Shown here: positions 24,843 through 50,997 of the stretch, in pieces | Layout: each line of letters starts with the position of its first letter | Position numbering within the stretch: position 1 is the stretch's first letter | Origin: Lichenicola cladoniae | GTDB lineage: Bacteria; Pseudomonadota; Alphaproteobacteria; Acetobacterales; Acetobacteraceae | Reading direction: 5' to 3' | DNA length: 64,000 bases | Assembly (NCBI RefSeq): GCF_013201075.1 | Contig: NZ_CP053708.1 | Span: 4,593,501 to 4,657,500 of the forward strand | Notes under the pieces: model-generated | What the model was told of the DNA's origin: nothing | Databases searched by the model: none | What the model saw: only the letters and a program-made list of their open reading frames with translations | Made by a program: the position numbers and the translations under genes

Positions 24843-24888
24843 CCCCACCGAATTCCTGCCGACAACGAGAAGCCAAAGGATGAATGCC

Positions 24889-25968: not shown

Positions 25969-25979
25969 GGGAAACCGGG

Positions 25980-27509: not shown

Positions 27510-28528
27510 CCGGTTCACCCACGCCATTTTCAAAGATCGGCCCACCTTCGCGTTTCAAGCAGGCGATCCGGCATTTCGGAGGCGCCGCGTTCTGCGGTAT
27601 CGGACTTTTTCTTCTTCTCGTCGTTTATTTCTACGAGCAGCCCCTCGCCCTTTCGAGTTTTGGAATCTCCAGCCTGGCCAACGCTTCCTTGGCACTGGTG
27701 CTGGTGGCAGCGGGCCAGACCTGCGTGCTGCTCGGCGGCGGACTGGACCTGTCGATCGGCGCGATCGTGAGCCTGGTGAACTGCTTTGCCGCCACGCTGA
27801 TGGGAGACAGCATCCTGAGCGTGGCACTCGTCGTGCTCGGCTCGCTGCTGCTTGGAATGCTGGCCGGCGCGGTGAATGGGCTGCTCATTGCCTATGGTCG
27901 GCTGGAGCCGCTGATCTCGACCTTCTGCACCCTGTTCGTCTATGGCGGACTGGCGCTGACCATTCGTCCTCAGCCGGGCGGCCATGTCTCCGACGACTTC
28001 GCGACCCTGCTCACCGGTAACCTGGGCGTGCTTCCCTACGCGGCGATCGTGCTCGCGGCCATGCTGCTACTGGTCTGGATGCCGATCTTCCGCTCCCGGC
28101 TTGGCCGGTTCATCGTCGCCGTCGGCGATAACAGCGACAGCGCCTATGCCTCCGGTCTCCCGGTTCGGCCAGTGCGTCTTGCGACCTACGTGATTTCAGG
28201 TCTGTTCGCCGCGGTCGCGGCGCTTTTCCTGACGGCGGAAACAACCTCGGGCGATGCCAGCATCGGCGCCAGCTACACCCTGAATTCTCTTGCGGCCGCC
28301 GTGCTGGGTGGGGTGGCATTGACCGGTGGGCGCGGCAGCGTAGTCGGCGCCATTCTCGGTGGCATCGTGCTGTCCCTCATCCTGAACCTGCTCAGCGTGT
28401 TGGGCGTACCTGCTTTCTGGCAGGACCTGATCGAGGGCTGCCTGCTGGTCCTCGTGCTGGCTGCCGCGGGAGTGCAGCGCCTTCGCATCGACGACTGGAC
28501 CAAGCTGCTCGGGAAGGGCCGGTCATGA
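27506..28528 (+). CDS. Sugar ABC transporter permease (CUT2 system 2, first)
   Basis: This 340-residue BPD_transp_2 permease has QTCVLLGGGLDLSIGAIVSL near residue 72 and LGGVALTGGRGSVVGAILGG near 272. It has a hydrophilic N-terminal tail of about 25 residues and then about ten hydrophobic helices. The start overlaps the ATPase stop and the stop overlaps the next permease start, so the four importer genes are tightly coupled. Confidence 0.92.
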   Translation: MTGSPTPFSKIGPPSRFKQAIRHFGGAAFCGIGLFLLLVVYFYEQPLALSSFGISSLANASLALVLVAAGQTCVLLGGGLDLSIGAIVSLVNCFAATLMGDSILSVALVVLGSLLLGMLAGAVNGLLIAYGRLEPLISTFCTLFVYGGLALTIRPQPGGHVSDDFATLLTGNLGVLPYAAIVLAAMLLLVWMPIFRSRLGRFIVAVGDNSDSAYASGLPVRPVRLATYVISGLFAAVAALFLTAETTSGDASIGASYTLNSLAAAVLGGVALTGGRGSVVGAILGGIVLSLILNLLSVLGVPAFWQDLIEGCLLVLVLAAAGVQRLRIDDWTKLLGKGRS

Positions 28529-29499
28529 GCGACGCGGCGCATCCCATCAAGATGCCAACGCGGTTGAAGGACAGGCTGACGAGGAGACCGGGCAGCAACC
28601 TATCCTGGGTCATCCTTGCGGTCGTGTTCGCACTGAGCGTGGCGATCAATCCTGCATTCCTGACCTGGGGCACCATTCGGCTGCAGCTGGTGCAGGCTGC
28701 GCTGATCGGCATCGTCGCGATCGGCGAAACGCTGGCGATCCTGATCGGTCACATCGATCTTTCGATTCCATGGACCATCACCCTCTCGGGTATATTGTCC
28801 GCCGACGTCTACGCCGCACACCCATCGGCGTGGGTACCGTTCGCTGTGGTCATTGCGGTGGGCGTGAGCGTAGGCTTGGTCAATGCCTTCGGCATCTACC
28901 TTCTGCGTGTCCACTCGCTGATCTGGACGCTGAGCGTAAACCTCATCCTGCAGGGTCTGACCCTCGTCTACACCAACGCCACGGCCTCCGCGCCAAGCGT
29001 GCCGCCGGTCGCACGCACGCTGGCGCTGGATAATTGGGGCGGGTTTCCTGTTGCCAGCCTGGTCTGGGCGGCCTGCGCAGTCGCGGTGATCCTGGCGCTA
29101 CGGGCCCTGCCGTTCGGCCGCCATGTCTATGCGGTCGGAAGCAACGAGCTGGCTGCGCTGATGTCCGGCGTTCCCACGGGCCGAACCTACGTTGTCGTGT
29201 ATGTCATCAGCGGGCTTTGCGCCGCGTTCGTCGGGCTGATGATCAGCGGCTACGCCTCGCAGGCCTATCTCGGCATGGGTGACAGCTACCTGCTGCCACC
29301 GGTGGCAGCCGTCGTTATCGGAGGCACCCGGTTATCGGGCGGAAGCGGAGGCTACGCCGGCACCATCAGCGGCAGCCTTTCGGTCATCCTGCTGCAAGCG
29401 ATGCTGGTAAGCCTGAACATATCGGAAGGCCTGCGGCAGATCATATTCGGCGTCATCCTGCTGGGCCTGGTTTTCTTGTTCACCCGTCAGCGTAAATGA
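28525..29499 (+). CDS. Sugar ABC transporter permease (CUT2 system 2, second)
   Basis: The second permease has 324 residues, with LAILIGHIDLSIPWTITLSG near residue 70 and VVIGGTRLSGGSGGYAGT near 265. It is closely similar in pattern to the second permease of system 1 (GHIDLSVPWT), supporting duplication of the whole importer. It is convergent with the NmrA-like gene 73 bases downstream. I see no clear intrinsic terminator in that gap. Confidence 0.92.
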   Translation: MSDAAHPIKMPTRLKDRLTRRPGSNLSWVILAVVFALSVAINPAFLTWGTIRLQLVQAALIGIVAIGETLAILIGHIDLSIPWTITLSGILSADVYAAHPSAWVPFAVVIAVGVSVGLVNAFGIYLLRVHSLIWTLSVNLILQGLTLVYTNATASAPSVPPVARTLALDNWGGFPVASLVWAACAVAVILALRALPFGRHVYAVGSNELAALMSGVPTGRTYVVVYVISGLCAAFVGLMISGYASQAYLGMGDSYLLPPVAAVVIGGTRLSGGSGGYAGTISGSLSVILLQAMLVSLNISEGLRQIIFGVILLGLVFLFTRQRK

Positions 29500-29572: not shown

Positions 29573-30481
29573 TTAGCTTCGTCCGGCCTGGTCGAGCACA
29601 TCGCGCGCGGAGGTCCAGGGCACCACCCCGTAACGATCATTGTCGAGCTGTTGCAGCTTGCCGCGGCCGCTCGCCATGTCACGTAGATACTGCATGCCCT
29701 GCCAGACCGAAAAGACTGCGTCACGCTGCGGGGCCAGCTTGCGAACGACCCGAATGACCATGCTGAGACGACCGATCCCGCCGGCGCGGAGCAGTCCGAA
29801 GCGCTTCCCGGTCATCTGGGTCATGGTGTCCGCGAGCGATCGGGGGGTGACCACCTCACCGGCTATGCGCAGGTAGCGCGGCGCTTCCGGATCCAGCGCC
29901 GCCGCCGCCGTATATCGGGCCACGTCGTCCTTGGTCGTGAAATCCATCGGCTGGTCGGCGTCTCCCCAATAGAGAACCTTCCTGACTCCACGAAGAACGA
30001 TCGGCGCCTGCCCGGCCAGCATATCGGCGAAAGCTCCGTTCAGGATGGAGGTCGCCCTGATCGGCGCACTGTCGACCTGCGCCATGAACTCGCGCCGCAG
30101 GTCCATGTTCCGGTTATCGCCCGGCCGGGTCCGGGTATAGTCGAGCGAGAAGTCCGACGGAATGAAGCGTGGCACCCCGCTGGCGACGGCAGCCTGCAGG
30201 ATACGCCCCTGCATCCCGATGATGATCGGGCGCAAGCCGTTGAGCGCCGACACGACGCAGGTGGCGCCCCGGCAGGCATCGATCAATTCGTTCGGATGAT
30301 CGAAATCAACCTCGATCACCGTCACGCCGAGCTTCGACAGCCGGTCACGCTTGTCGCCTGACGTTCCGGAATGGACGAGCGCGCGGACCTGCCCCCCCCG
30401 GTCCACGAGCGACCGCGCGATCCGTCCACCGAGATCGCCGGTTCCGCCCGCAAGAACAATGGCTCGGGTCGTGTTGCTCAT
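29573..30481 (-). CDS. NmrA-like NAD(P)-binding protein
   Basis: The 302-residue protein has an N-terminal Rossmann motif, VLAGGTGDLGGRIARSL, and the NmrA/isoflavone-reductase-like segments FIPSDFSLDYTRTRPGDN and MDFTTKDDVARYTAAAAL. Such atypical SDRs act as redox sensors or reductases; the substrate is unknown. The ATG at 30481 is preferred over 30490 because AAGGA lies eight bases before it. It follows the SorC-type regulator gene by 19 bases and is probably in its operon. A run of eight G on the coding strand (30392-30399) falls within the codons for DRGGQV, a potential slippage site. Confidence 0.78.
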   Translation of the reverse strand: MSNTTRAIVLAGGTGDLGGRIARSLVDRGGQVRALVHSGTSGDKRDRLSKLGVTVIEVDFDHPNELIDACRGATCVVSALNGLRPIIIGMQGRILQAAVASGVPRFIPSDFSLDYTRTRPGDNRNMDLRREFMAQVDSAPIRATSILNGAFADMLAGQAPIVLRGVRKVLYWGDADQPMDFTTKDDVARYTAAAALDPEAPRYLRIAGEVVTPRSLADTMTQMTGKRFGLLRAGGIGRLSMVIRVVRKLAPQRDAVFSVWQGMQYLRDMASGRGKLQQLDNDRYGVVPWTSARDVLDQAGRS

Positions 30482-30500
30482 CACGTTCATCCTTCGATCG

Positions 30501-31508
30501 TCATTGGTTTCGAGCTCCGGATGCAACGGCATATGCGGTGTCCCCATCGATGATCAGCCCCCGGACCACTCCGGTCCGCAGCAGGGAATGGACTGCCGCC
30601 ATTTTCTGCAGGCCGGCGGCGGCAAGGACAACGTCGCGACCCCGCAGCTCGGTAAAGTCGACCGCGAGGGTGCGGCGGGTCAGCTCGTGATCGACCTCCG
30701 CCCCATTCCTGTTGAACAGGCGACCCAGAGAGTCCGCGACCGCACCTTTGGCCCGCACACTTCGAAGTTCGGAGGCCGAAAGCATGCCGTGTTTTCGCAG
30801 GAACGCGGTGTCGCTCAGCTCGCCGACGCTGATCATGTAGACATCGGCGGATCGTGCCAGGGCCAAGGCTTCAGCCACGGTGCGCTGGGACATGAAAACC
30901 GCCCGGTCGGCTTCCGTATCGGCGATGAACGGCACCGGCAGGAAATGCGCCTCCCCGCCGGTCCGGGCAGCCAGCGCCTGTACCACCTCGAACGGGTTGG
31001 AGGCCGAGTTGCGGGTCAGCGACCCCATGAGCGACACGAAGCACGCGCGCGAGTTCTGCACGCCCGACAGGTGCAACGCCATCTGTTCCAGCGTGCGTCC
31101 CCAACTTACGCCGACGGTGACGGCGCCGCGACCGGTCAGCTTGCCCTTGAGGAAGTTGGCGGCAGCGGCACCGACCGCACGTCGTGAGATCATGTCCTGG
31201 GCGGCGGCGAGGTTCGGCTCGTCGGTCGCCAGCTCGAAACCCATCCGGGGCGTCGCGATGCAGAAATCCAGCCCGTAGCGGCTGGTCAAGGTATCCTCGA
31301 CTTCCAGGTCGCGGATCGTCTCGTGGTTGATGGTCACGCTGACCAGGCCCTTCTCGCGCGCATCGCTCAACAACCTGACGACGCGCGTGCGATGCACGCC
31401 GAGACGCCGGGCGACCTCCTCCTGGGTCATGCCGCCGACATGATAGAGCCAGGCTGCCCTGACCATGATGTCCGCGTCGGGTTCATGGCCCAGGTTCAAG
31501 GTCATCAT
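30501..31508 (-). CDS. SorC/DeoR-family sugar-responsive regulator
   Basis: The 335-residue regulator has an N-terminal helix-turn-helix (MTQEEVARRLGVHRTRVVRL) and a large SorC-type sugar-phosphate-binding domain with VGVSWGRTLEQMA and MISVGELSDTAFLRKHGMLS. Family members bind phosphorylated sugars. The ATG at 31508 is chosen because AGGA lies five bases upstream; the in-frame ATG at 31523 is an alternative. It is divergent from the kinase/dehydrogenase/importer operon and very likely controls it, with a phosphorylated intermediate made by the kinase as effector. Confidence 0.88.
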   Translation of the reverse strand: MMTLNLGHEPDADIMVRAAWLYHVGGMTQEEVARRLGVHRTRVVRLLSDAREKGLVSVTINHETIRDLEVEDTLTSRYGLDFCIATPRMGFELATDEPNLAAAQDMISRRAVGAAAANFLKGKLTGRGAVTVGVSWGRTLEQMALHLSGVQNSRACFVSLMGSLTRNSASNPFEVVQALAARTGGEAHFLPVPFIADTEADRAVFMSQRTVAEALALARSADVYMISVGELSDTAFLRKHGMLSASELRSVRAKGAVADSLGRLFNRNGAEVDHELTRRTLAVDFTELRGRDVVLAAAGLQKMAAVHSLLRTGVVRGLIIDGDTAYAVASGARNQ

Positions 31509-31585
31509 CGGGGTCCTGCTCATCGGGCGATAATACCCATTGACTTCTGTCGCGCCTAACGACGATTGTCGGCTCAAGAGCAAAT

Positions 31586-31620
31586 GTCGTCCAGTGCATC
31601 ATATGTGCAGATGGTACGAC
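31586..31620. promoter_or_regulatory. Candidate SorC operator upstream of the kinase operon
   Basis: GTCGT (31586-31590) and ACGAC (31616-31620) are inverted arms, and within them CATATG (31600-31605) flanked by TGCA on both sides (31595-31598 and 31606-31609) shares nearly the same centre. A further inverted repeat, CGAC-GATT-GTCG, lies at 31560-31571. The site is in the 129-base gap between the divergent regulator and kinase genes. Symmetry is seen directly; binding by the SorC protein is inference. Confidence 0.4.
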
Positions 31621-31637
31621 GTGGATGGGTCCGGGTG

Positions 31638-33140
31638 ATGGTCTACGTAATCGGCATCGATGGCGGGACGGAGAGCGTGCGTGCGACGGTGTTCGATCTG
31701 GCCGGCCGCCGGATCGCCTCTGCCTCGTCCGCGTATCCAACGCAGTTTTCCGCAGGCGCCCGTGCCGAGCAGGACCCGGAATCATGGTGGTCGGCTCTAG
31801 GCATCGCGGTACGGCGCGTCGTGGAGGAAGCCGGTGTCGGAATCCACGATGTCGCCGCCATCTGTGCCACTACGACCTGCTGCACCGTCGTTGCCCTCGA
31901 CGAGGCAGTGCGTCCGTTGCGCCCGGCGATCCTCTGGATGGACGTGCGGGCAGGCAAGGAGGCCGATGCCGTTCTAGCGACCGGGGATCCGGCACTGGTC
32001 CTGAACGGAGCCGGCCAGGGTCCGGTTTCAGCCGAGTGGATGATCCCCAAGGCCTTGTGGCTGGCACGGCATGAACCGGAGATCTTCGAGGCTGCGCATA
32101 CGATCTGCGAGTACCAGGATTTCATGAACTGGCGCCTGACAGGGCGGCGGACGGCGAGCCTGAACAATGCCTCCATACGCTGGCATTACCGTGACGATGC
32201 AGGTGGCTGGCCCGACAGCCTGCTCGACACGCTGAACCTGTCGGAACTTCGGAAAAAATGGCCTGCAGAAGTGCTGCCGCCCGGGGCTGCGATCGGCACG
32301 CTGACAGCCCGCGCAGCCGATCATCTTGGACTCGCGGAGACCGTGCTGGTGTTGCAGGGCGGCGCCGATGCGCTGATCGGCATGATCGGGTTGGCCGTTG
32401 CGCGCCCCGGCCAGCTCGCGCTGATCACCGGTTCGTCGCATCTGCAGTTCGCGGTCGGCGACCGGACCACCAGCGTCGCTGGACTGTGGGGAACCTACAG
32501 CAACGCGGTGTATCCCGGCCGGACGATCCTGGAGGGTGGCCAGACATCGACGGGATCGATCGTCGCCTGGTTGCGCCGGCTCATGGGCGACGGTTTCGAT
32601 CTCGACGCGCTCAACCTCGAGGCCGGCCGGCTGGAGCCGGGAGCCGATGGCCTGCTGGTGCTCGACCATTTCCAGGGAAACCGGACTCCGTACACCGATC
32701 CACTGGCGCGCGGCGCGATCACCGGATTATCCCTGCACCATACCGGTGCGCATCTGTTCCGGGCCACGCTGGAAGGGATCGGTTTCGGTACCCGCGCCAT
32801 CCTGGACCGCATGGCCGAGGCCGGTTGCGGCGCCGCCGAAATCACCGCCGGTGGCGGCGCGACACGCTCGCCGTTGTGGCTGCAGATCCACGCCGACACG
32901 TCGGGCCTGCCGGTGGTCGTCCCCGAAGTGGCCGAAGCGCCGTCGCTGGGGGCCGCGGTGCTGGCAGCCCACGGCTCGGGACATTTCGCCAGCATCGACG
33001 ACGGCATCGCCGCGATGGTCCGCACCGGCCGGCGTATCGAGCCGATCGCCGAGAACGTCGACCGCTACCAGTCGATCTACCAGCGCTACGTCGAGCTCTA
33101 TCCTGCCCTGAAGCCGCTCCGAGAGGTTGTTCCTGCATGA
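31638..33140 (+). CDS. FGGY-family carbohydrate kinase
   Basis: The 500-residue kinase begins MVYVIGIDGGTESVRATVFD, the phosphate-binding motif of the hexokinase/actin fold. It has ILWMDVRAGKEAD near residue 98, LEGGQTSTGSIVAWL near 298 and the second family signature region with AEITAGGGATRSPLWLQIHA near 405. The pattern is closest to ribulokinase-like or erythritol-kinase-like FGGY members, so a ketose or polyol is the likely substrate. The ATG at 31638 is used; a GTG at 31635 is possible. Its stop overlaps the next start (ATGA), coupling it to a dehydrogenase subunit. Confidence 0.88.
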   Translation: MVYVIGIDGGTESVRATVFDLAGRRIASASSAYPTQFSAGARAEQDPESWWSALGIAVRRVVEEAGVGIHDVAAICATTTCCTVVALDEAVRPLRPAILWMDVRAGKEADAVLATGDPALVLNGAGQGPVSAEWMIPKALWLARHEPEIFEAAHTICEYQDFMNWRLTGRRTASLNNASIRWHYRDDAGGWPDSLLDTLNLSELRKKWPAEVLPPGAAIGTLTARAADHLGLAETVLVLQGGADALIGMIGLAVARPGQLALITGSSHLQFAVGDRTTSVAGLWGTYSNAVYPGRTILEGGQTSTGSIVAWLRRLMGDGFDLDALNLEAGRLEPGADGLLVLDHFQGNRTPYTDPLARGAITGLSLHHTGAHLFRATLEGIGFGTRAILDRMAEAGCGAAEITAGGGATRSPLWLQIHADTSGLPVVVPEVAEAPSLGAAVLAAHGSGHFASIDDGIAAMVRTGRRIEPIAENVDRYQSIYQRYVELYPALKPLREVVPA

Positions 33141-34153
33141 CGCTACCGAACACGATGCTGCCGGACCTGTATCGCACGATGCGGCGCATCCGGACCTTCG
33201 AGGAGCGGGTCGCCGAGTTGTACGCGCGAGGCCTTTCCGCCGGTTCCATGCTGCATCTCTCTATCGGCGAGGAAGGGGCCGCGGCCGGCGTTGCGGCGGC
33301 GATGCAGCCGCAGGACAGCTTCACCACACATCATCGCGGGCATGGAATTTTTCTGGCGCGTGGCGCCGATCCGGGCCGGATGATGGCTGAGATCGGCGGC
33401 AAGGATTCCGGCTATTGCCGCGGCAAAGGCGGGTCGATGCATATCGCCGACATGGCGCTCGGTCATCTCGGCGCAAATGCGATCGTCGGCGGCGGTATTC
33501 CCCACGTCGTCGGTGCAGGCCTCAGCTACAAGAACCTGAAAAGCGACGCGATCGCGGTGGCATTCTTCGGCGACGGCGCGATGCAGCAGGGCGTCCTCTA
33601 CGAGAGCATGAACATGGCGGCACTCTGGGACCTGCCGGTGCTGTTCGTCTGCATCAACAACCAATATGGCATGGGCACGCGCATCGACCGGGCCACCCGC
33701 TCGATCGAGTTCGACCGGCGTGCCGAGGCGTTCGGCCTGGCTGCGGCAATGGTCGACGGGGAAGATGTCGAGGCGGTGACGCAGACCGCACGAACTCTCG
33801 CCGACGGCGCCCGTGCCGGCAGGCCGGGATTCATGGCGGTGTCCTGCTTCCGCTTCTTCGGTCACGGCCGGATGGACAAGTCGCCGTACCGGACGGCGGA
33901 TGAGGAAAGCATCGGCCGCGCGCGGGATCCGGTTATCCGCGCCCGCAGCACGTTGCTGTCGAGCGGGCAGAGCGATAGCGCCACGCTCGACGTGCTCGAT
34001 GCCGAGATCGCGCTCGAAATGGACGCGACGATCGATTTCACCGCGGCAGCGGAAGCTCCCGCCGCAGCCAGCATGTTCCGCGATGTCTATGGTCCCGGCG
34101 AAGCCGAGCCCGAACCGCTTGCCAAGCGCCTCGACCGTATCCTCGCGGCCTGA
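33137..34153 (+). CDS. Acetoin-dehydrogenase-like E1 component, alpha subunit
   Basis: This 338-residue thiamine-diphosphate enzyme subunit matches AcoA/PDHA. It has RIRTFEERVAELYARG near residue 17, GGSMHIADMALGHLGANAI near 97 (closer to AcoA than to pyruvate dehydrogenase in the MHIAD..GANAIVGG stretch), and the thiamine-diphosphate/Mg motif GDGAMQQGV...FVCINN around 153-183. With the beta subunit it would decarboxylate a 2-oxo acid or cleave an acetoin-like alpha-hydroxyketone. Its start overlaps the kinase stop, an unusual pairing that suggests the true substrate is a kinase product. Confidence 0.88.
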   Translation: MTLPNTMLPDLYRTMRRIRTFEERVAELYARGLSAGSMLHLSIGEEGAAAGVAAAMQPQDSFTTHHRGHGIFLARGADPGRMMAEIGGKDSGYCRGKGGSMHIADMALGHLGANAIVGGGIPHVVGAGLSYKNLKSDAIAVAFFGDGAMQQGVLYESMNMAALWDLPVLFVCINNQYGMGTRIDRATRSIEFDRRAEAFGLAAAMVDGEDVEAVTQTARTLADGARAGRPGFMAVSCFRFFGHGRMDKSPYRTADEESIGRARDPVIRARSTLLSSGQSDSATLDVLDAEIALEMDATIDFTAAAEAPAAASMFRDVYGPGEAEPEPLAKRLDRILAA

Positions 34154-34167
34154 TCGGACACCGAACC

Positions 34168-35151
34168 ATGGCGACCATCGAGATCACCTACCGCGACGCG
34201 CTGCGAAAGGCGTTGCAGGATTCCATGCGCGAGGACGAGACCATCGTCGTCATCGGCGAGGAAGTCGGCGCGTATGGCGGCGCATACGGCGTCACCAAGG
34301 ATCTGATCGGCGAGTTCGGGGCGACGCGCCTGATCGACACCCCGATCAGCGAGCCGGCCATCGTCGGTGTCGCGGTGGGTGCCGCGATGACCGGGCTGCG
34401 GCCGGTCGCCGAGCTGATGTATGTCGATTTCCTCGGCCTGGTAATGGATCAGCTTGCAAACCAGGCCGCGAAGATCCGCTACATGTTCGGCGGCCAGATC
34501 GGCGTGCCCATGGTCCTGCGCACCCAGGGTGGCACCGGCCGGTCCGCCGGCGCACAGCATTCGCAGAGCCTCGAAGGTTGGATCATGCATACGCCGGGCC
34601 TGCGCCTCGCCATGCCGGCGACCGCGGAGGATGCCTACCACCTGCTGCGCCACAGCCTGACCCTGCCCGATCCTGTTGTGTTCATCGAGCACAAGTCGCT
34701 CTACACGCGGAAGGAAATGGCCGACCTGGACACGCCGGCAGCCCCGTGGGGCAAGGCCATCGTTCGCCGGGCGGGCACGCAGGCGACGCTGGTGACCTAT
34801 TCCCGCATGGTGCATTCGGCACTTGCGGCGGCGGAGATCCTGGAAAAGCAGGGCGTCTCGATCGAGGTGATCGATCTGCGTACGCTCAACCCGCTGGATA
34901 TGGAGACGGTGATCGCCTCCGTGGAGCGCACCGGGCGTGCGATGGTGGTGAGCGAGGGGCCGCTGACGGCGGGCGTCGCCGCCGAGCTGGCCGCACGCAT
35001 ATCCGAAGAGTGCTTCGATTATCTCGAGGACCCGGTGATCCGGATCGCCGGTGAGGATATTCCGATCCCGGTTTCGCCCGCGCTCGAGGCGGCCAGCATC
35101 CCGACCCCGGACCTGATCGTGCAGACCCTGTTGCGGATGCTGCGCCGGTGA
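34168..35151 (+). CDS. Acetoin-dehydrogenase-like E1 component, beta subunit
   Basis: The 327-residue partner carries the transketolase pyrimidine-binding domain (IGEEVGAYGGAYGVTKDLIG, DTPISEPAIVGVAVGAAMTG) and the C-terminal transketolase domain (IEVIDLRTLNPLDMETVIAS). It starts 14 bases after the alpha subunit and overlaps the E2-like gene by GTGA. The family forms an alpha2beta2 heterotetramer with the previous product. Residues alone do not distinguish acetoin from 2-oxo acid use, so assignment leans on the alpha subunit and on the hydrolase-fused E2. Confidence 0.9.
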   Translation: MATIEITYRDALRKALQDSMREDETIVVIGEEVGAYGGAYGVTKDLIGEFGATRLIDTPISEPAIVGVAVGAAMTGLRPVAELMYVDFLGLVMDQLANQAAKIRYMFGGQIGVPMVLRTQGGTGRSAGAQHSQSLEGWIMHTPGLRLAMPATAEDAYHLLRHSLTLPDPVVFIEHKSLYTRKEMADLDTPAAPWGKAIVRRAGTQATLVTYSRMVHSALAAAEILEKQGVSIEVIDLRTLNPLDMETVIASVERTGRAMVVSEGPLTAGVAAELAARISEECFDYLEDPVIRIAGEDIPIPVSPALEAASIPTPDLIVQTLLRMLRR

Positions 35152-36404
35152 TCGCCGAACTGACCCTCCCTCGTCTGGGAGAAACCATGGAGACCGGCCG
35201 CGTCAGCGCATGGCTGAAGCAGCCGGGCGAGTCGTTCAAGCGCGGCGAGACGCTGGTCGAGATCGAGAGCGACAAGACCGTCGTCGAGATGCCGGCCCTT
35301 GCGGATGGAGTGCTGTTTGAGATCGTCGTCGAGGCCGGGCAGGATGCCGATGTCGGGGCCGTGCTCTGCCGCTATGAAGACGGCCGCGCCGCAACCTCTG
35401 TCCCGGACTCCAGGCCGGAACCGATTCGCGACCCGGTTCCGGTCCAAGCGACGGTCGCGCCGGAAGCGCCCGGCAAGGGCGTCTCGTCCGGAGGCACTCG
35501 TGCAACCCCGCTGGCCCGGCGCGTGGCCCGGGACGGCAACGTCGCACTCGACGGTCTGATCGGCACCGGCCGGCGCGGCCGGATCGAGGCTGCGGACGTG
35601 CGGCGGTGGCTTGCGCAGGCGCCCGGCGCGGAGACGCCGGCAGCCCGGATCTCGAGCCTTGACGTCTCGGGCGGACGTCTCGATCGGCGTGACTGGGCAG
35701 CAGCGAACGCAACCGGTCCACGCATCGTGCTGCTGCACGGGCTCGCGGCGGACGTCCAGAGCTGGTCCGCGCTCGCCTCGATGCTGATGCGCGCAGGCCG
35801 GAGCGTGACGGCGATCGATCTACCCGGGCACGGCACGACCAGTCTCGACGCAATCTCCGTCGATCACGCTGCGGACACCGTCGCGGACTTCCTGAAGACG
35901 CTCGGCGGCGAACCGGTGGAACTGGTCGGGCACTCGCTCGGCGGCGCGATCGCGGCGCGGGCGGCACGATCCGCCTCCGCCCAGGTGCGCCGCCTCACGC
36001 TGCTGGCCCCGGCCGGCCTGGACCGGGCGATCGACGTCGACTTCATCCGGAACATCGTCCGGGTGCGTTCGAGCGGGGCGCTCCAGCATCTGCTGCGTCG
36101 TCTGGTGGTTCGGCCGGCTCTCCTGACCGCTGCACAACTCGACGCACTCGCAGGCGAACTCGGCCGCGGACGGCTGACCGGTCTTGCGGACACGCTGGTG
36201 GACGAGGGCGGCCAGCAGATCGACATCACCGCCGACCTGCGCGCGCTGACGATGCCGGTCCGGATCGTCTGGGGCGTGCAGGACCGCATCATTCCATGGA
36301 CCCAGGTCAGCCAGGCCGGAAGCCGGTGCGCCATCCACCTGATCCAGGATGCCGGACATGTCCCGCACTGGGATCAGCCGGCGGAGGTTGCGGCCTTGTT
36401 CTGA
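35148..36404 (+). CDS. Lipoyl-domain/alpha-beta-hydrolase fusion, AcoC-type E2
   Basis: This 418-residue protein has a lipoyl domain (residues 1-78, lipoylated lysine in ESDKTVVEM at about residue 43), a peripheral-subunit-binding domain (TPLARRVARDGNVALDGLIG near 120), then an alpha/beta hydrolase (VLLHGLAADVQSW, LVGHSLGGAIAAR, VWGVQDRIIPW, AGHVPHWD). That replaces the usual acyltransferase catalytic domain, as in AcoC proteins of acetoin dehydrogenase complexes. GTG start at 35148. No dihydrolipoamide dehydrogenase (E3) gene is nearby, so E3 must be shared with a housekeeping complex. Confidence 0.88.
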   Translation: MIAELTLPRLGETMETGRVSAWLKQPGESFKRGETLVEIESDKTVVEMPALADGVLFEIVVEAGQDADVGAVLCRYEDGRAATSVPDSRPEPIRDPVPVQATVAPEAPGKGVSSGGTRATPLARRVARDGNVALDGLIGTGRRGRIEAADVRRWLAQAPGAETPAARISSLDVSGGRLDRRDWAAANATGPRIVLLHGLAADVQSWSALASMLMRAGRSVTAIDLPGHGTTSLDAISVDHAADTVADFLKTLGGEPVELVGHSLGGAIAARAARSASAQVRRLTLLAPAGLDRAIDVDFIRNIVRVRSSGALQHLLRRLVVRPALLTAAQLDALAGELGRGRLTGLADTLVDEGGQQIDITADLRALTMPVRIVWGVQDRIIPWTQVSQAGSRCAIHLIQDAGHVPHWDQPAEVAALF

Positions 36405-36441
36405 CGTGCCCGACCACTAGAAACCAGGGAGGTAAAAAACG

Positions 36442-37548
36442 ATGAGCAACGACTCACGCATTATCCAGCCGACCCGTCGCAGCCTGTTGCGCGGCATGGG
36501 ACTCGGTGCCGCCGCCGTCGGTGGAGCGCAACTGGCACAGTTCGCGTTCGGCAGCACCGAAGCCCACGCGCAGACAAACACCAGGCCGGTAAAGCTCGCA
36601 GTGGTGGCGCAACAGATGTCCGCGCAATCGGATCAGCGCAGCTGGGCCGGGTTCCAGCAGTGGCTGAAGACTACCGGGCTCGACAAGAGCTGGGAGGTCA
36701 ACATGAGCGATGCCAAGGGCGATCCAGGCGCGCTTGTCAGCCAGATCGAGAATGCGATCACCGCGAAATCCGATGCGATCCTGGTGATGTATGGCACGCT
36801 GACCGCGGCACACAGCGCGCTCGATGATCTCGCCAAGTCGAAAATACCGTTCTTCAGCCTCGATAGCGGCTGGCAGTCGCCGGCGATCGCCGACATCACC
36901 AGCAACAACTGGGTGATGGGCGGCCAATACACGCAATACATGGTCGACCGGCTGCTCGGCGACGGCAAGCAGACAGCCAACATCTGCGCAGTGGTCGCCA
37001 ACTTCCATCACGGGACACGCAAGCGCGGCAAGGTGATGCGGGCGGTGCTCACCGAAAACGAGTGGATCACCCTCAAGGCCGATCGGGTCATCCAGTATTC
37101 GGCCTTCTACGAGACCACGCAGAACGTGGTGAATGACTGGCTCGCCCGTTATGGCAACGATCTCGACGCGATCTGGTGCCCTTGGGACGAACCCGGGATG
37201 GCGGCAGCGGAGGTCATCAAGTCCCGCAACATGCAGGACAAGGTGTTCGTCGTCTCTGCCGATGGACAGTCGACCGCGGTCGACCGGATGCGGGACCTGA
37301 GCTACCCGCTGAAGGCGACCACGGCCCAGGCCTTCGAGGTGTGGGGCGCCTATACCGGCTGGCTGATCAACGAGATCGTCGGCAAGGGCCGCCCGGCCAA
37401 GGAGGTGGTGCCGGTGCCGACCGTCGAGTTCCCGGCGCCGCTGCTCGTCAACGGCATCAACGTTCCGCCGGCCGGCAAGCCGACATACGAAGCGACCGAC
37501 CTGTACTACATCTATCGCGATCGGGCCCTCGCCGGAATGAAAGCCTGA
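36442..37548 (+). CDS. Tat-exported sugar ABC binding protein (CUT2 system 3)
   Basis: The 368-residue binding protein has a twin-arginine signal (TRRSLLRGMG at residues 11-20, cleavage near AHAQT), so it is exported folded, unlike the Sec-type binding proteins of systems 1 and 2. The mature protein is of the Peripla_BP_4 type (SDAILVMYGTLT, DAIWCPWDEPGMAAAEVI). It starts after GGAGG (36429-36433). It sits between the dehydrogenase complex and its ATPase, which makes it the uptake component for the locus substrate. Confidence 0.88.
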   Translation: MSNDSRIIQPTRRSLLRGMGLGAAAVGGAQLAQFAFGSTEAHAQTNTRPVKLAVVAQQMSAQSDQRSWAGFQQWLKTTGLDKSWEVNMSDAKGDPGALVSQIENAITAKSDAILVMYGTLTAAHSALDDLAKSKIPFFSLDSGWQSPAIADITSNNWVMGGQYTQYMVDRLLGDGKQTANICAVVANFHHGTRKRGKVMRAVLTENEWITLKADRVIQYSAFYETTQNVVNDWLARYGNDLDAIWCPWDEPGMAAAEVIKSRNMQDKVFVVSADGQSTAVDRMRDLSYPLKATTAQAFEVWGAYTGWLINEIVGKGRPAKEVVPVPTVEFPAPLLVNGINVPPAGKPTYEATDLYYIYRDRALAGMKA

Positions 37549-37553
37549 CCGCC

Positions 37554-39131
37554 ATGCCGGGCAGCACCGCCGCATCGTCCAGCCTGTCCGATCCCGGCGG
37601 GCTGGATACTGCGACAGCGCGGATCGCGGCAGGCGCGCCGCTGCTCCGGGTTCGTGGCGCCGGCAAGAGCTTTGCCGGAACCGCGGCGCTGACCGGCGTC
37701 GACCTCGATCTTCGGGCGGGCGAAATGCTCGCCCTGGTTGGAGCCAACGGCGCCGGCAAGTCGACGCTGGTGAAGATCATCTGCGGCGCGGTGATGCCGG
37801 ACGCGGGGACGCTGGAGGTCGGCGGACGCACCGTCCATCTCCGCACCGTCGCCGACGCGCTCGCCGCCGGCATCGCGGTCGCGCACCAGCAGGTCGCGAT
37901 CATTCGCCAGTTGACCGGCGCCGAGAACATCATGCTTGGCCGTGAGCCGTTGCACGGGGGCCTGATCGACAGGCGTGCGCTCACCGCCGCGGCGCAGGAA
38001 TTGGCGGATCGGTTCGATGTGCGGATCGACCTGTCGTGCGAGTGCGACACGTTGAGCCTCGGCGAGCTCAAGATCCTCGACATTCTCAAGGCCCTGGCCA
38101 CCACGCCGCGCATCCTGATCCTGGACGAACCCACCGCGTCGCTGACCCTGGCCGAAACGCAGCGCCTGTTCGCGTTCCTGGCCGACCTCAAGCAACGGGG
38201 TATCGGCATCCTGTTCATCTCGCATCACATGAACGAGGTGTTCGCGCAGTGCGATCGCGTGGTGGTGCTCAAGGACGGGCGAAAGGTCCATGACGGCGAT
38301 CTCGCCGACACGACCCTGCCGGCCGTGGTGCGTCTCATGGTCGGGCGGACGATCGAGGAAACGGACTGGACCAGTCATGCCGTCATCGGCAAAAGCGACG
38401 ACGACGTCATCTCGATCAGGGGCCTGCGCATCGGCCGGCTGGGGGTTCCGGACCTCACGGTGCGCCGGGGCGAAGTGGTCGGTGTCGCGGGGGTGCTCGG
38501 CGCGGGGCAGACCGAACTGCTGGAATGTCTTGCCGGCGCCGCCCGTCCGGTCGATCCGGGACAGGTACGGCTTGCCGATCTTGGCCGCCTGCCGCGCAAC
38601 GTCGCGGACGCGGTCGATCACGGCATCTACCTCGTTGCCGACGACAGGCTGCGCAAGGCGATCTTTCGCGGCCTGTCGGTCGAGGAGAACATACTTGCCG
38701 GCTCGCTCGCGCAGATCAGCCGCCATGGTTTCGTCCAGGGCCGGACTGCGATGGCAAGCGTCCGGACCATCATCGAGCGCCTGCGCGTCAAATGCAGTGG
38801 TCCGCACCAGGAGGTCCTGCAACTTTCCGGCGGCAACCAGCAGAAAGTGATTTTCGGTCGCTGGCTTGCGCGGATCGGTAGCGGCGCCACGCCACCGGTA
38901 CTGCTGCTGGACAATCCTACCGAGGGCGTCGATGTCGGCAGCAAGGCCGAGTTGTATGCCCTGATCAGCGACCTTGCGCGGCAGGGGGCCGCGATCCTGA
39001 TCGCCTCGGCCGAATTCTCGGAGCTCATCACGCTCTGCGACCGGGTCTACTGCATCACACATAGCCGGACCGCCGTCTGCGTCCCGCGCACCGAACTTTC
39101 CGAAGACCGGCTCCTGCTCGAGGTGAACTGA
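37554..39131 (+). CDS. Sugar ABC transporter ATPase, two NBDs (CUT2 system 3)
   Basis: The 525-residue ATPase starts at the ATG 37554, five bases after the binding-protein stop. NBD1 has Walker A GANGAGKST, signature-region LSLGELKILDILKAL (no canonical SGGQ) and Walker B ILILDEPTASL. NBD2 lacks the Walker A lysine (GVLGAGQTE), has LSGGNQQKV and ends LLLDNPTEGVDVG, with Asn in place of the catalytic Glu. It shares one base with the permease start. A 30-residue N-terminal extension precedes NBD1. Confidence 0.92.
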   Translation: MPGSTAASSSLSDPGGLDTATARIAAGAPLLRVRGAGKSFAGTAALTGVDLDLRAGEMLALVGANGAGKSTLVKIICGAVMPDAGTLEVGGRTVHLRTVADALAAGIAVAHQQVAIIRQLTGAENIMLGREPLHGGLIDRRALTAAAQELADRFDVRIDLSCECDTLSLGELKILDILKALATTPRILILDEPTASLTLAETQRLFAFLADLKQRGIGILFISHHMNEVFAQCDRVVVLKDGRKVHDGDLADTTLPAVVRLMVGRTIEETDWTSHAVIGKSDDDVISIRGLRIGRLGVPDLTVRRGEVVGVAGVLGAGQTELLECLAGAARPVDPGQVRLADLGRLPRNVADAVDHGIYLVADDRLRKAIFRGLSVEENILAGSLAQISRHGFVQGRTAMASVRTIIERLRVKCSGPHQEVLQLSGGNQQKVIFGRWLARIGSGATPPVLLLDNPTEGVDVGSKAELYALISDLARQGAAILIASAEFSELITLCDRVYCITHSRTAVCVPRTELSEDRLLLEVN

Positions 39132-40114
39132 TGTCCGTCACTACGTCGGCGCCCACCCGTCGCCCTATCGATACCGGCGCGCTGGCAGCCCGCTACGGTA
39201 CGGTTGCTGCGGCTGTGCTCATTTTCGTGGTGTTCGCGCTTTCCAGCAGCCAGTTCACCTCGGCCGCCAACATCAGCAATATCCTGGTGCAGATCTCGGT
39301 GCTGATGGTGATCTCGTCAGGTGTCACCGTCGCCGTGGCGAGCGGCGAGTTCGATCTGTCCGTCGGTCAGATCGCCGGATTGTCGGGCGTGCTGGTCGCC
39401 GGGTTGATGGCATGGTCCAAGCTTCCGATCCCGCTTGCCATCGTCCTGGCGGTGCTGGCGGGCGTTCTGCTTGGCGCACTCAGCGGAGTCCTGGTCACCA
39501 GGCTGCGTATTCCCTCGCTGATCGCCACGCTGGCGATGGGACCGATCGCACTCGGCCTGAACTACGCCTATGACGGCGGAGACTCGATCTACACGCAGTT
39601 CCCGAAGCCGTTCTATGTGATCGCGACCGGGCGAGTGTTCGGCGTCATACCGGTGCCGATCATCATCGCCTTCGTGGTGGTGACCGCCTTCTACGTCCTG
39701 ATCAACAAGACCCGTCTCGGGCGGGCCCTGGTCGCCACCGGATCCAACCTGCAGGCAGCCCGGCTTTCGGGGATCAACGTCAACCGGTGCCGGATGCTGG
39801 CGCTGACCTTGTCGGCACTCGGTGCGGCGATGGGCGGCATCATGCTCACCGCCCGGCTCGGAACCGGTCAGCCCGGCGCGGGCGAACCGTATCTGATGGA
39901 CAGCCTGACCGCGGTATTCCTCGGCATGACCGCGTTCAAGCCGGGCCGTGCCACGGTGCAGGGCACGCTGGTCGGCGTCGTCATTATCGGCATGCTCGAT
40001 AACGGGCTCAATCTCCTGGGCGCGCCGTTCTACCTGCAGAACGAGGTGCGAGGCGTGGTGATGATCGCCGCCGTCAGCCTCGCCGTGCTTCGCGGCGAAA
40101 TACGTTTCTTCTGA
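39131..40114 (+). CDS. Sugar ABC transporter permease (CUT2 system 3)
   Basis: This is a single BPD_transp_2 permease of 327 residues with VTVAVASGEFDLSVGQIAGL near residue 68 and VFLGMTAFKPGRATVQGTLV near 260. Unlike systems 1 and 2 there is only one permease gene, so it should act as a homodimer. The start is the ATG formed by TGATG across the ATPase stop. It is followed 13 bases later by an SDR gene in the same direction. Confidence 0.92.
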   Translation: MSVTTSAPTRRPIDTGALAARYGTVAAAVLIFVVFALSSSQFTSAANISNILVQISVLMVISSGVTVAVASGEFDLSVGQIAGLSGVLVAGLMAWSKLPIPLAIVLAVLAGVLLGALSGVLVTRLRIPSLIATLAMGPIALGLNYAYDGGDSIYTQFPKPFYVIATGRVFGVIPVPIIIAFVVVTAFYVLINKTRLGRALVATGSNLQAARLSGINVNRCRMLALTLSALGAAMGGIMLTARLGTGQPGAGEPYLMDSLTAVFLGMTAFKPGRATVQGTLVGVVIIGMLDNGLNLLGAPFYLQNEVRGVVMIAAVSLAVLRGEIRFF

Positions 40115-40127
40115 AGGAGGACCAGAC

Positions 40128-40889
40128 ATGGCAAAACCGGCAAACGGTCGCACTGCCCTCGTAACCGGCGCCAGTCGCGGTATCGGCCGGGCGATCGCGC
40201 TCGGGCTCGCCGGCGACGGGTTCGACATCGTGCTGAACGATATCGAACGGCAGCGGGACGAACTCGAAGCCGTCGCGGGCGAGATCGCCCGGATCGGACG
40301 GCGTGCCATCCCGTTATTCGCCGATGTCGGGAATCGCGACCAGGTGCGGGCGATGGTTGCAACCGGACTTGCGCAGGCCGGGCGGATCGACGTCGTCGTC
40401 AACAATGCCGGCATCCTGATCCCGAACCTGGTGGAAAACCTCCTCGAGCAGGAATGGGATGCGGTGATGGACATCAACGCGAAGGGCACATTCCTGGTCG
40501 TTCAGGCTGTGTTGCCGCACATGCGCGAACGTGGTTACGGGCGTATCGTCAACATCGCCTCGATCGGCGGCAAGCATGGTGCGCCGGAGCAGGCGCATTA
40601 CTCGGCCAGCAAGGCGGCGGTCATGGGTTTCACCCGGGTGCTCGCGCAGGAAGTCGGACAGTTCGGCATTACCGCGAACTGCGTCTGCCCCGGCATCATC
40701 GTCACCGACATGGGCCGCACCAACCTGTCCGAGCAGGCCAGCATCGATAAATGGGTCGGCATCACGGCGTTGCGTCGCCTGGGCCAGCCCGAGGATGTCG
40801 TGGGGCCAGCCTGCTTCCTGGCTTCCGATGCGTCGGCCTTTGTCACCGGCCAGTCCCTCAACGTGTGCGGCGGTATTACCCTGAGCTGA
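40128..40889 (+). CDS. SDR family dehydrogenase (polyol/ketose type, locus 3)
   Basis: This 253-residue classical SDR has VTGASRGIGRAIALGL at the N-terminus, VVNNAGIL near residue 88 and the catalytic tetrad with YSASK near 157. GGAGG lies about nine bases before the ATG at 40128. By position at the end of a sugar-import and kinase operon it probably oxidises a polyol or interconverts a ketose. FabG-like annotation would be the default, but the context argues for carbohydrate metabolism. Confidence 0.87.
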   Translation: MAKPANGRTALVTGASRGIGRAIALGLAGDGFDIVLNDIERQRDELEAVAGEIARIGRRAIPLFADVGNRDQVRAMVATGLAQAGRIDVVVNNAGILIPNLVENLLEQEWDAVMDINAKGTFLVVQAVLPHMRERGYGRIVNIASIGGKHGAPEQAHYSASKAAVMGFTRVLAQEVGQFGITANCVCPGIIVTDMGRTNLSEQASIDKWVGITALRRLGQPEDVVGPACFLASDASAFVTGQSLNVCGGITLS

Positions 40890-40924
40890 ACCGGCAGCTT
40901 TGGTCTTCGGGAAAGTCGACGACA

Positions 40925-41698
40925 ATGTACATGCGGAAATTGCGTCTCGATGGCCGGGTCGCGGTGGTCACAGGTGGAGCCGGCGGTATCGGGCTCGCCT
41001 GCGTACACGCCCTGGCCGAAGCGGGTGCGCATGTCGTCATCGCCGATCTCGACATGACCCAGGCCGAAGCCGGGGCGCAGGCTGTCAAGGAAGCCGGCGG
41101 TCAGGCAAGCGTCGTCGCGCTGGACGTCACCAGAACGACAAGCGTCAAAGAGGCCGCTCAGGCTGTGCTCGCAAGGCTGGGCAAGGTCGATATCCTCGTC
41201 TGCAACGCCGGGATCGTCGTCTCCGAGATCAAGGCGGAAGACCTCGATGACGAGGTCTGGAACCGGCATATCGACATCAACCTGGGCGGCGTTTTTCGCT
41301 GCTGCCGCGAATTCGGCCGCAGCATGCTTCAGCAGCAACGGGGCTCGATCATCAATATCGGGTCGATGGCAGGATCCATCGTCGTCAGGCCGCAGGAACA
41401 GGCGGCCTACAACGCCTCGAAAGCCGGGGTTCATCAACTCACCCGGTCGCTGGCCGCGGAGTGGGCGATGCGCGGCGTTCGCGTGAACGCCGTCGCACCG
41501 ACGTACATCGAAACGCCACTGACGCGTTTCGGAATGGCCAAGCCGGCGCTCTATGATCAATGGCTGGCGCACACTCCAATGAACCGGGTGGGACAACCAG
41601 ACGAGATCGCCTCGGTGGTCCACTTCCTGGCATCGGATGCCGCAAGCCTGATGACCGGCAGCATCGTGTATGCGGATGGCGGCTACACCGTCTGGTAG
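40925..41698 (+). CDS. SDR family dehydrogenase (second, locus 3)
   Basis: This 257-residue SDR has VVTGGAGGIGLACVHAL near residue 15, LVCNAGIVVSE near 95, INIGSMAG near 147 and YNASKAG near 163. The residues VNAVAPTYIETPLTRFG and the polyol-dehydrogenase-like N-terminus suggest a sugar alcohol or sugar substrate. It starts 35 bases after the preceding SDR and completes the operon; the ATG at 40931 is an alternative start. The presence of two SDRs implies two redox steps, or two stereoisomers. Confidence 0.86.
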   Translation: MYMRKLRLDGRVAVVTGGAGGIGLACVHALAEAGAHVVIADLDMTQAEAGAQAVKEAGGQASVVALDVTRTTSVKEAAQAVLARLGKVDILVCNAGIVVSEIKAEDLDDEVWNRHIDINLGGVFRCCREFGRSMLQQQRGSIINIGSMAGSIVVRPQEQAAYNASKAGVHQLTRSLAAEWAMRGVRVNAVAPTYIETPLTRFGMAKPALYDQWLAHTPMNRVGQPDEIASVVHFLASDAASLMTGSIVYADGGYTVW

Positions 41699-49062: not shown

Positions 49063-49069
49063 CACAGCC

Positions 49070-50996: not shown

Positions 50997-50997
50997 G

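What the first reader, a model, noticed from the sequence alone, without database searches (positions are those of the whole stretch)
31508..41698. Kinase + acetoin-dehydrogenase-like complex + ABC importer: candidate new ketose catabolism
Seen: a SorC regulator divergent from an operon of FGGY kinase, E1alpha, E1beta and lipoyl/hydrolase E2 (joined by ATGA and GTGA overlaps), a Tat-exported CUT2 binding protein, ATPase, permease and two SDRs. Known: acetoin dehydrogenase cleaves CH3-CO-CHOH-R to acetyl-CoA plus aldehyde. Inferred: a phosphorylated 1-deoxyketose (for example 1-deoxyxylulose-type) made by the kinase would be cleaved to acetyl-CoA and a phospho-aldehyde such as glyceraldehyde 3-phosphate; a normal ketose phosphate would instead give glycolyl-CoA. 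The SDRs would supply the ketose from a polyol. I know of no described pathway with this gene set.
Basis: partly seen in the sequence, partly recalled or inferred. Interest (0 to 1): 0.8.

Follow-up and report, generated by a model that had tools for sequence, protein, structure and literature searches.

The report
Kinase-linked sugar-cleaving dehydrogenase operon
A bacterial operon joins a sugar importer and a sugar kinase to its own branch of the big enzyme complexes that normally burn pyruvate, probably to cut an unusual sugar phosphate into an energy-rich two-carbon unit and a smaller sugar phosphate; the same set recurs in many other bacteria, but the sugar is not yet known.

Summary
The gene set is real and as described. 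The core (FGGY kinase, E1alpha, E1beta, AcoC-type E2) recurs within a few kilobases on one strand in 38 kinase loci, from Acetobacteraceae, Rhizobiaceae and Rhodobacterales to Verrucomicrobiota. Among 72,556 plasmids the nine with a >=60% kinase and the nine with a >=60% E1alpha are the same nine. In 250 genomes of the order all five E1alpha carriers lie among the seven strong kinase carriers; in one the kinase is about 300 kb from the E1-E2 operon. E1alpha and E1beta each form a 100/100 clade outside acetoin dehydrogenase and PDH, with changed pocket and phospholoop residues; only the E2 is of acetoin type. SDR2 resembles polyol dehydrogenase Gox2181. Best reading: polyol to ketose, phosphorylation, then E1-E2 cleavage to acyl-CoA plus phospho-aldehyde. 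Acetyl-CoA from a 1-deoxyketose phosphate fits best (a few relatives carry deoxypentose-salvage genes) but is unproven. Against: related kinases occur in genomes without the E1, and DhaK-DhaL neighbours are unexplained. Ten searches of an open-access library listed no paper on it.

The parts
30501..31508 (-). SorC/DeoR-type sugar-binding transcriptional regulator, divergent from the operon
   Evidence: Sugar-bind PF04198 178.6 bits; LsrR model 92.1 bits against cut-off 486; SorC-like gene in 35 of 38 E1-positive kinase loci
31638..33140 (+). FGGY carbohydrate kinase
   Evidence: FGGY_N/FGGY_C; xylulokinase model 310.8 bits, under the 380.25 cut-off; start supported by the ortholog alignment A1
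33137..34153 (+). TPP-dependent E1 alpha subunit, own clade
   Evidence: PF00676 210 bits; clade 100/100; ATGA overlap with the kinase
34168..35151 (+). TPP-dependent E1 beta subunit, own clade
   Evidence: PF02779 and PF02780; clade 100/100
35148..36404 (+). E2: lipoyl domain, E3-binding domain, alpha/beta-hydrolase domain (AcoC type)
   Evidence: PRK14875 324.8 bits against cut-off 307; PF00364, PF02817, PF12697; GTGA overlap with E1beta
36442..37548 (+). CUT2 periplasmic sugar/polyol-binding protein with twin-arginine leader
   Evidence: PF13407 98.1 bits; model pLDDT 82.2; nearest folds 3l49 and 4wt7
37554..39131 (+). CUT2 ABC transporter ATPase, two ATP-binding domains
   Evidence: PF00005, 2 stretches
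39131..40114 (+). CUT2 ABC transporter permease
   Evidence: PF02653 145.7 bits
40128..40889 (+). SDR1 short-chain dehydrogenase, conserved partner
   Evidence: PF13561; SDR1 orthologs (>=60% to one of two reference copies) in 25 of 38 E1-positive kinase loci
40925..41698 (+). SDR2 polyol-dehydrogenase-like SDR (Gox2181 type)
   Evidence: PDB 3awd E 2.3e-103; SDR2 orthologs (>=55%) in 19 of 38 loci

Best explanation
A SorC-controlled catabolic operon for a polyol or ketose. The CUT2 importer brings the compound in; one or both SDRs oxidise a polyol to a ketose; the FGGY kinase phosphorylates the terminal hydroxymethyl group; the dedicated E1 (alpha and beta) attacks the ketose carbonyl with thiamine diphosphate, cuts the C2-C3 bond, releases a phospho-aldehyde and passes the remaining acyl group to the lipoyl arm of E2, which makes acyl-CoA; E3 is shared with another complex of the cell. 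The likeliest acyl group is acetyl, so the phosphoketose would be a 1-deoxyketose (for a pentulose: acetyl-CoA plus glyceraldehyde 3-phosphate, in effect DXP synthase run backwards and oxidatively). Shown: gene content, conservation and co-occurrence, a separate E1 clade with changed loops, a polyol-type SDR2, E3 genes elsewhere in the genome. Inferred: order of steps, that the kinase product is the E1 substrate, and the acyl group. Nested estimates: E1 acts on the kinase product about 0.5; that it yields acetyl-CoA from a 1-deoxyketose phosphate about 0.3. The confidence below is for the wider claim, which includes the glycolyl variant listed as a rival.
For: Kinase and E1 travel together. 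The same 9 of 72,556 plasmid records hold both at >=60% identity; below them the kinase falls to 53% and E1alpha to 44-47% in the rows nearest below. In G019 the E1-E2-importer-SDR1 operon lacks the kinase, but the one kinase match of that genome (E<=1e-60; 6 of its 12 candidates were scored) lies about 300 kb away. In 38 of 38 E1-positive kinase loci kinase and E1beta are on one strand, at most 2.3 kb apart (having E1beta in the locus defines the set). E1alpha and E1beta clades have 100/100 support, apart from the group that holds the annotated acetoin operons L123 and L124 and from PDH-type rows. Clade-specific residues (39 alpha and 40 beta rows against 37 and 36 others): alpha S36-M37-L38, H64, R244 and K247, each 39/39; beta Q120, G121, T123, S126 just before QHSQ, each 40/40. 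That R244/K247 lie in phospholoop A and M37 at the pyruvate-pocket phenylalanine is placed from recalled PDH numbering. SDR2 is closest to 3awd, which is Gox2181, an NAD(H)-dependent polyol dehydrogenase (PMC9304392, passages). Deoxysugar hints in relatives: L058 has MtnK over its cut-off and a protein 67% identical to the MtnA of L059, beyond an epimerase-like gene next to the regulator; L059 has MtnA (over cut-off), DhaK, DhaL, kinase and a fuculose-phosphate-type aldolase in a row. Two lipoamide dehydrogenases over cut-off lie elsewhere in the genome.
Against: No substrate is known. In the 44-row kinase clade 6 rows lack E1 in the locus, and the 8 rows just outside it (7 plus L028) lack it in the locus too; two of those outside (L059, L088) have the E1alpha on another contig of the genome, but 9 of 17 kinase-bearing genomes, chosen partly for this, have no E1alpha at E<=1e-90. 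Kinases at 53% (Skermanella) and 45% (Rubrobacter) have no E1 beside them. In L064 the kinase (70%) sits in a polyol cluster with a tagatose-kinase-like PfkB protein (302.6 bits, under the 420 cut-off), so it may serve ordinary ketoses. MtnK is seen in one locus and MtnA-type proteins in two. DhaK-DhaL beside the core in 6 of 38 loci would be redundant if the aldehyde product is already phosphorylated. No deoxysugar gene was recognised in loci of the window's kind. Basic residues in the phospholoop are only suggestive; some other E1s have R or K there. SDR1 is not found in 13 of 38 loci (some loci are cut by contig ends).
Confidence: 0.5

Rival explanations
1. E1-E2 is an acetoin/2,3-butanediol-type dehydrogenase complex or takes another small acyloin or 2-oxoacid, and the kinase and importer serve a separate sugar branch in the same regulon.
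For: E2 passes the AcoC equivalog cut-off. An AhpD-like CMD gene stands in 20 of 38 kinase loci and also in an annotated acetoin operon of Paracoccus. SDR1's best structure match is a putative acetoin (diacetyl) reductase, 4weo. The own genome has no other AcoC-type E2 over cut-off.
Against: E1alpha and E1beta lie outside the acetoin group with full support and differ at clade-wide residues. None of the ten window products is AcoX, and the regulator is SorC-type. The kinase is kept beside it in two phyla.
Confidence: 0.2
2. The E1-E2 complex cleaves an ordinary ketose phosphate to glycolyl-CoA plus an aldose phosphate (a variant inside the wider best claim).
For: Kinase nearest to xylulokinase and ribulokinase models; a related kinase in a polyol cluster with a tagatose-kinase-like protein (L064); D-psicose-3-epimerase-like gene in 5 of 38 loci.
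Against: Ordinary ketose phosphates already enter the pentose phosphate pathway (general knowledge), and no gene for glycolyl-CoA or glycolate use was recognised among the neighbours that were scanned (many ORFs were not).
Confidence: 0.12
3. E1-E2 cuts an unphosphorylated deoxyketose to acyl-CoA plus a free hydroxyaldehyde, which a kinase (FGGY or DhaK-DhaL) then phosphorylates.
For: DhaK-DhaL (dihydroxyacetone kinase family) adjoin the core in 6 of 38 loci, and stand beside E1alpha-E1beta on a 6.8 kb contig without the FGGY kinase in L230, whose genome has that kinase on another contig.
Against: The FGGY kinase, not DhaK-DhaL, is the commoner partner; the window operon has no DhaK-DhaL (34-48% matches elsewhere in the genome).
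Confidence: 0.12
4. The operon processes the signal autoinducer-2 (DPD), as the Lsr system does with LsrK, LsrR and LsrACDB.
For: Same kinds of parts: FGGY kinase, SorC-type regulator, CUT2 importer; DPD carries a methyl ketone. The binding protein of the other cluster type matches LsrB at 5.4e-25; LuxP is rank 50 in the fold search of the window protein.
Against: Kinase 174.7 bits against the LsrK cut-off of 528; regulator 92.1 against 486 for LsrR; none of the ten products looks like LsrF or LsrG. No LsrB among the 9 PDB sequence matches of the window's binding protein at E<=1e-5.
Confidence: 0.04

Closest known systems
Acetoin dehydrogenase complex AcoABC(+L), e.g. Paracoccus plasmid locus L123
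   Same: E1alpha/E1beta plus lipoyl/alpha-beta-hydrolase E2 (AcoC type); SDR and CMD neighbours in L123
   Different: E1 subunits form another 100/100 clade (42-45% identical to L123 and L124); FGGY kinase, SorC regulator and CUT2 importer in place of AcoX, sigma-54 regulators and butanediol dehydrogenase
Pyruvate dehydrogenase E1 alpha/beta
   Same: Fold family, TPP and E2-coupled chemistry; best structure match is human PDH E1alpha
   Different: E1alpha under both PDH equivalog cut-offs (302.8/393.85 and 189/411.35); changed pocket loop and phospholoop
D-apiose non-oxidative transketolase route (isomerase, FGGY kinase, two-subunit transketolase; recalled, no call)
   Same: An FGGY kinase whose product goes to a thiamine enzyme
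   Different: Here a PDH-type E1 with lipoyl E2, giving an acyl-CoA, not a ketol transfer
DHAP shunt / 5-deoxyribose salvage (DrdK-DrdI-DrdA; PMC6079011, abstract and passages)
   Same: Deoxypentose phosphate cut to a two-carbon and a three-carbon unit; MtnK/MtnA/aldolase homologs neighbour the kinase in L058 and L059
   Different: Aldol cleavage to DHAP and acetaldehyde; none of these genes is in the window operon
MTA-isoprenoid shunt (makes 1-deoxyxylulose 5-phosphate; PMC5893883, passages)
   Same: Provides the compound class proposed as substrate
   Different: Feeds isoprenoid synthesis; the passages seen mention no E1-E2 cleavage

Membership tests
Acetoin dehydrogenase complex | E2 of AcoC type | tested here: met
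   PRK14875 324.8 against cut-off 307
Acetoin dehydrogenase complex | E1 subunits within the acetoin clade | tested here: not met
   Sugar-operon E1s are a separate 100/100 clade in both trees; L123 and L124 (operons annotated with acetoin genes) group with L088, L149 and L154 at 100/100
Acetoin dehydrogenase complex | Cleavage of acetoin | not testable with these tools
   needs enzyme assay
Pyruvate dehydrogenase E1alpha (equivalog) | Score over the curated cut-off | tested here: not met
   302.8/393.85 and 189/411.35; the broader beta-subunit subfamily NF006667 is met, 355.8/321, the beta equivalog NF008854 is not, 356.8/454
Lsr autoinducer-2 system | LsrK and LsrR over cut-off | tested here: not met
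   174.7/528 and 92.1/486
Xylulokinase (XylB equivalog) | Score over the curated cut-off | tested here: not met
   310.8/380.25
DHAP shunt | MtnK-type kinase, MtnA-type isomerase and class II aldolase in the operon | tested here: not met
   None among the ten window products; the genome's one MtnA over cut-off lies elsewhere
Polyol dehydrogenase Gox2181 type (SDR2) | Close full-length sequence match | tested here: met
   3awd E 2.3e-103 over query 1-256; activity not testable here
CUT2 sugar importer | Peripla_BP_4 binding protein, double ABC_tran ATPase, BPD_transp_2 permease | tested here: met

The most novel reading that the evidence does not exclude
A new kind of glycolytic C-C cleavage: a PDH-type thiamine/lipoyl complex that oxidatively splits a phosphorylated 1-deoxyketose into acetyl-CoA and a phospho-aldehyde (the reverse sense of DXP synthase), giving bacteria a direct route from deoxy-alditols or 1-deoxyketoses to acetyl-CoA without an aldolase or the pentose phosphate pathway; other E1-E2 clusters linked to SorC-type regulators (L121, L125, L199) would be further branches.
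Probability: 0.3. Interest if true: 0.82.

Novelty: new variant of a known kind. Interest (0 to 1): 0.62.

Why it matters
2-oxoacid dehydrogenase complexes are textbook machines for pyruvate, 2-oxoglutarate, branched-chain oxoacids and acetoin. A conserved, separately evolved branch tied to a sugar kinase would show that such complexes also cleave phosphosugars, would explain a widespread module now annotated merely as 'pyruvate dehydrogenase E1' and 'acetoin dehydrogenase', and would offer a short, carbon-conserving route from sugar to acetyl-CoA for metabolic engineering. The question is directly testable with four purified proteins and an E3.

Tried and rejected
Promoter scans were not run. 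Rfam over 22-44 kb: 0 matches at gathering score. Autoinducer-2 and plain xylulokinase were rejected as identities on curated cut-offs. Looked for a CMD/AhpD-like gene: none of the ten window products; 5 PF02627 matches elsewhere in the genome. In L034 only a 25-residue E2 remnant precedes CMD and the kinase, so that operon looks decayed. At first the locus-level gene filter hid overlapping ORFs; later counts use unfiltered hits. Rows dropped: partial or duplicate loci named in the script and kinases under 38% identity before the kinase tree; 21 sugar-clade rows were kept for each E1 tree, while residue counts used 39 and 40. The fold search of the binding protein gave general CUT2 kin: 3l49, 4wt7, ribose binders and, lower, a 5-methylthioribose binder 4ry8, and in plain sequence 4wt7 is only fifth for the window protein, so it does not settle the ligand. 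SDR2-like genes are common in the host family (52 of 249 genomes at E<=1e-70), far commoner than the kinase, so SDR2 is not diagnostic. A second FGGY kinase (PF21546) stands near the aldolase or the core in L059, L061, L062 and L193: unexplained. Paper searches: ten; some listings were capped (15 of 160, 15 of 163, 15 of 27). Papers opened, only as found passages: PMC6079011, PMC6302742, PMC5893883, PMC10318746, PMC12193009, PMC9304392.
Full report
What is there. The window lies at G000:C1:4593501-4657500 of a 6.06 Mb genome in 8 contigs. A contig of a same-genus genome, G058, has the length and kinase position of a record titled uncultured Acetobacteraceae. The operon runs kinase, E1alpha, E1beta, E2, binding protein, ATPase, permease, SDR1, SDR2, with a SorC-type regulator facing the other way. 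The E2 is of AcoC type (lipoyl, E3-binding, alpha/beta-hydrolase; 324.8 bits against a cut-off of 307). No E3 is in the operon; two lipoamide dehydrogenases over cut-off lie elsewhere. The genome has no second AcoC-type E2 over cut-off.

Conservation. A kinase search of 72,556 plasmid records gave 67 records at E<=1e-60, nine of them at 60-80% identity and the next at 53%. The E1alpha search gave 62 records at E<=1e-60, nine at 60-80%, the rest under 60% and at 44-47% in the rows nearest below. The two sets of nine accessions are the same. Five of these nine plasmids were opened (Rhizobium CIAT894, Nitratireductor OM-1, two Tritonibacter mobilis, Roseateles XES5). All five carry regulator, binding protein, ATPase, permease, E1alpha, E1beta, E2, a small CMD/AhpD-like protein, kinase and at least one SDR. 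Plasmids with kinases at 53% and 45% (Skermanella, Rubrobacter) do not have E1 beside them. In the kinase tree of 78 rows a clade of 44 has support 100/99; 38 of its rows have E1beta (>=60%) in the same locus and 6 do not. In those 38, E1alpha at >=55% is found in 37, E2 in 38, SorC in 35, SDR1 in 25, SDR2 in 19, CMD in 20, the window-type binding protein in 26, DhaK and DhaL in 6, AKR in 4, the epimerase-like protein in 5; kinase and E1beta are on one strand in 38 of 38, at most 2.3 kb apart. Some of these loci are cut by contig ends, so the numbers of absences may be too high. The rows include Acetobacteraceae, Rhizobiaceae, Paracoccaceae, Azospirillum, Caballeronia and two Verrucomicrobiota MAGs.

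Co-occurrence. In 250 genomes of the host order a kinase match at E<=1e-60 is in 15 and at E<=1e-200 in seven; E1alpha at E<=1e-100 is in five, all five among the seven (hypergeometric 2.7e-9; the seven are of two genera, so this overstates independence). In a class sample of 385 genomes E1alpha at 60% or more is in two, with no other listed row above 46% (the list was cut), and the kinase at E<=1e-110 in five, including those two. In G019 the operon E1alpha-E1beta-E2-binding protein-ATPase-permease-SDR1 has no kinase, and the one kinase match of that genome (6 of 12 candidates scored) is about 300 kb away in a polyol cluster (L227, L194). Results against a strict pairing: 9 of the 17 genomes checked, a set that included loci chosen for lacking E1, have no E1alpha at E<=1e-90; the other 8 have one, four of them away from the kinase (G019, and the genomes of L059, L060 and L088).

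The E1 is its own family. Trees of 58 E1alpha and 57 E1beta rows put the 21 sugar-operon rows in one clade with 100/100 support, away from the group holding the annotated acetoin operons L123 and L124 (100/100) and from the PDH-like rows. Deeper placement is weak and long branches are flagged. Residues invariant in the clade and rare outside it (39 against 37 alpha rows, 40 against 36 beta rows) include alpha S36, M37, L38 with a one-residue insertion, H64 beside the HRGHG motif, R244 and K247 in the loop GHxRxDKSPYR, and beta Q120, G121, T123 and S126 just before QHSQ (alignment shown for fewer rows). By recalled PDH numbering the first group is at the pyruvate pocket and the loop with R244 and K247 is phospholoop A. 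A larger, more basic entrance is what a phosphorylated substrate would need, but this is inference.

Which compound. [quoted passage not shown] The Rhizobium binding protein's best PDB sequence matches are 3l49 and 4wt7, and the window protein's model gives the same two first, although in plain sequence 4wt7 is fifth for the window protein; 4wt7 was solved with allitol (PMC10318746, passages). The window-type binding proteins share invariant motifs (DSG, HHGTRKRG, PWDEP), so they probably share a ligand. Loci with the same kinase/E1/E2 core but another CUT2 importer lack the SDRs and carry, in varying combinations, an aldo-keto reductase, a D-psicose-3-epimerase-like protein and DhaK-DhaL (L051, L054, L056, L058, L065, L066). 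L058 adds MtnK (439 bits against 275) and a protein 67% identical to the MtnA of L059 beyond the epimerase-like gene next to the regulator; L059 has MtnA (403.5 bits against 279), DhaK, DhaL, kinase and a fuculose-phosphate-type aldolase in a row; L193 has that aldolase, DhaK, DhaL, regulator, kinase, E1alpha, E1beta and E2 together; L072 adds a FucU-like protein under its cut-off. MtnK-, MtnA- and fuculose-phosphate-aldolase-like enzymes are the parts of 5-deoxyribose salvage (PMC6079011, abstract and passages). This tilts the balance toward deoxysugars, hence toward a 1-deoxyketose phosphate and acetyl-CoA, but it rests on few loci, none of the window's own kind, and DhaK-DhaL remain unexplained.

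Reading. Polyol or ketose import, oxidation, phosphorylation, thiamine-dependent cleavage to acyl-lipoyl and a phospho-aldehyde, then acyl-CoA. The step order is inferred. Ten searches of the open-access library listed no paper that describes this gene set; several listings were capped and that library lacks most subscription journals.

Wider pattern. Other E1-E2(-E3) clusters with sugar-binding regulators or sugar genes turned up: L121 (Sinorhizobium chiapasense: sugar kinase, CUT1, aldolase), L122 and L196 (Pacificitalea and Phaeobacter: CUT2, SDRs), L125 (a Clostridioides plasmid) and L199 (Priestia plasmid: E1beta, E2, E3, two sugar-binding regulators, SAF-domain protein and a 41% FGGY kinase). 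They suggest that sugar-linked E1-E2 complexes may be a general, little-studied class.

Noticed in passing
window 24880-29499: A second CUT2-type importer (binding protein, ATPase, two permeases; judged from the translations) directly upstream, followed by an NmrA-like gene (29573-30547, -) that overlaps the end of the SorC gene; it may belong to the same regulon.
   Followed up: partly
L121:6265-14901: Sinorhizobium chiapasense plasmid: sugar-binding regulator, NAD(P)H-dependent oxidoreductase, E1alpha, E1beta, E2, Lpd and class II aldolase beside a CUT1 importer and sugar kinase: another sugar-linked E1-E2-E3 cluster.
   Followed up: partly
L199:1-10566: Priestia plasmid with E1beta, E2, Lpd, two sugar-binding regulators, SAF-domain protein and an FGGY kinase (41% to the window's): a Gram-positive counterpart of the same idea.
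   Followed up: no
L059:284-6919: MtnA, DhaK, DhaL, FGGY kinase and fuculose-phosphate-type aldolase in a row, with a second FGGY_C_2 kinase divergent: looks like a deoxysugar cluster; its genome has the E1alpha (71%) on another contig.
   Followed up: partly
L123:11927-12256: A CMD/AhpD-like gene sits in an annotated acetoin operon, and a CMD gene is present in 20 of 38 kinase loci, between E2 and kinase in the five plasmids opened; the Rhizobium copy has a CEDC motif. It may serve the lipoyl arm of AcoC-type E2s.
   Followed up: no
L034:9520-9949: Only a 25-residue E2 remnant (64%) before CMD and kinase in Rhizobium sp. RU20A: a decayed operon that kept the kinase.
   Followed up: partly
window 48001-56000: G+C falls to 0.53-0.59 against about 0.63-0.68 elsewhere in the window; ORFs there look like GNAT-type acetyltransferases, an ATP-binding protein and uncharacterised proteins (judged by eye), possibly a foreign insert after a sugar-transporter-like gene at 47611-49062.
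   Followed up: no
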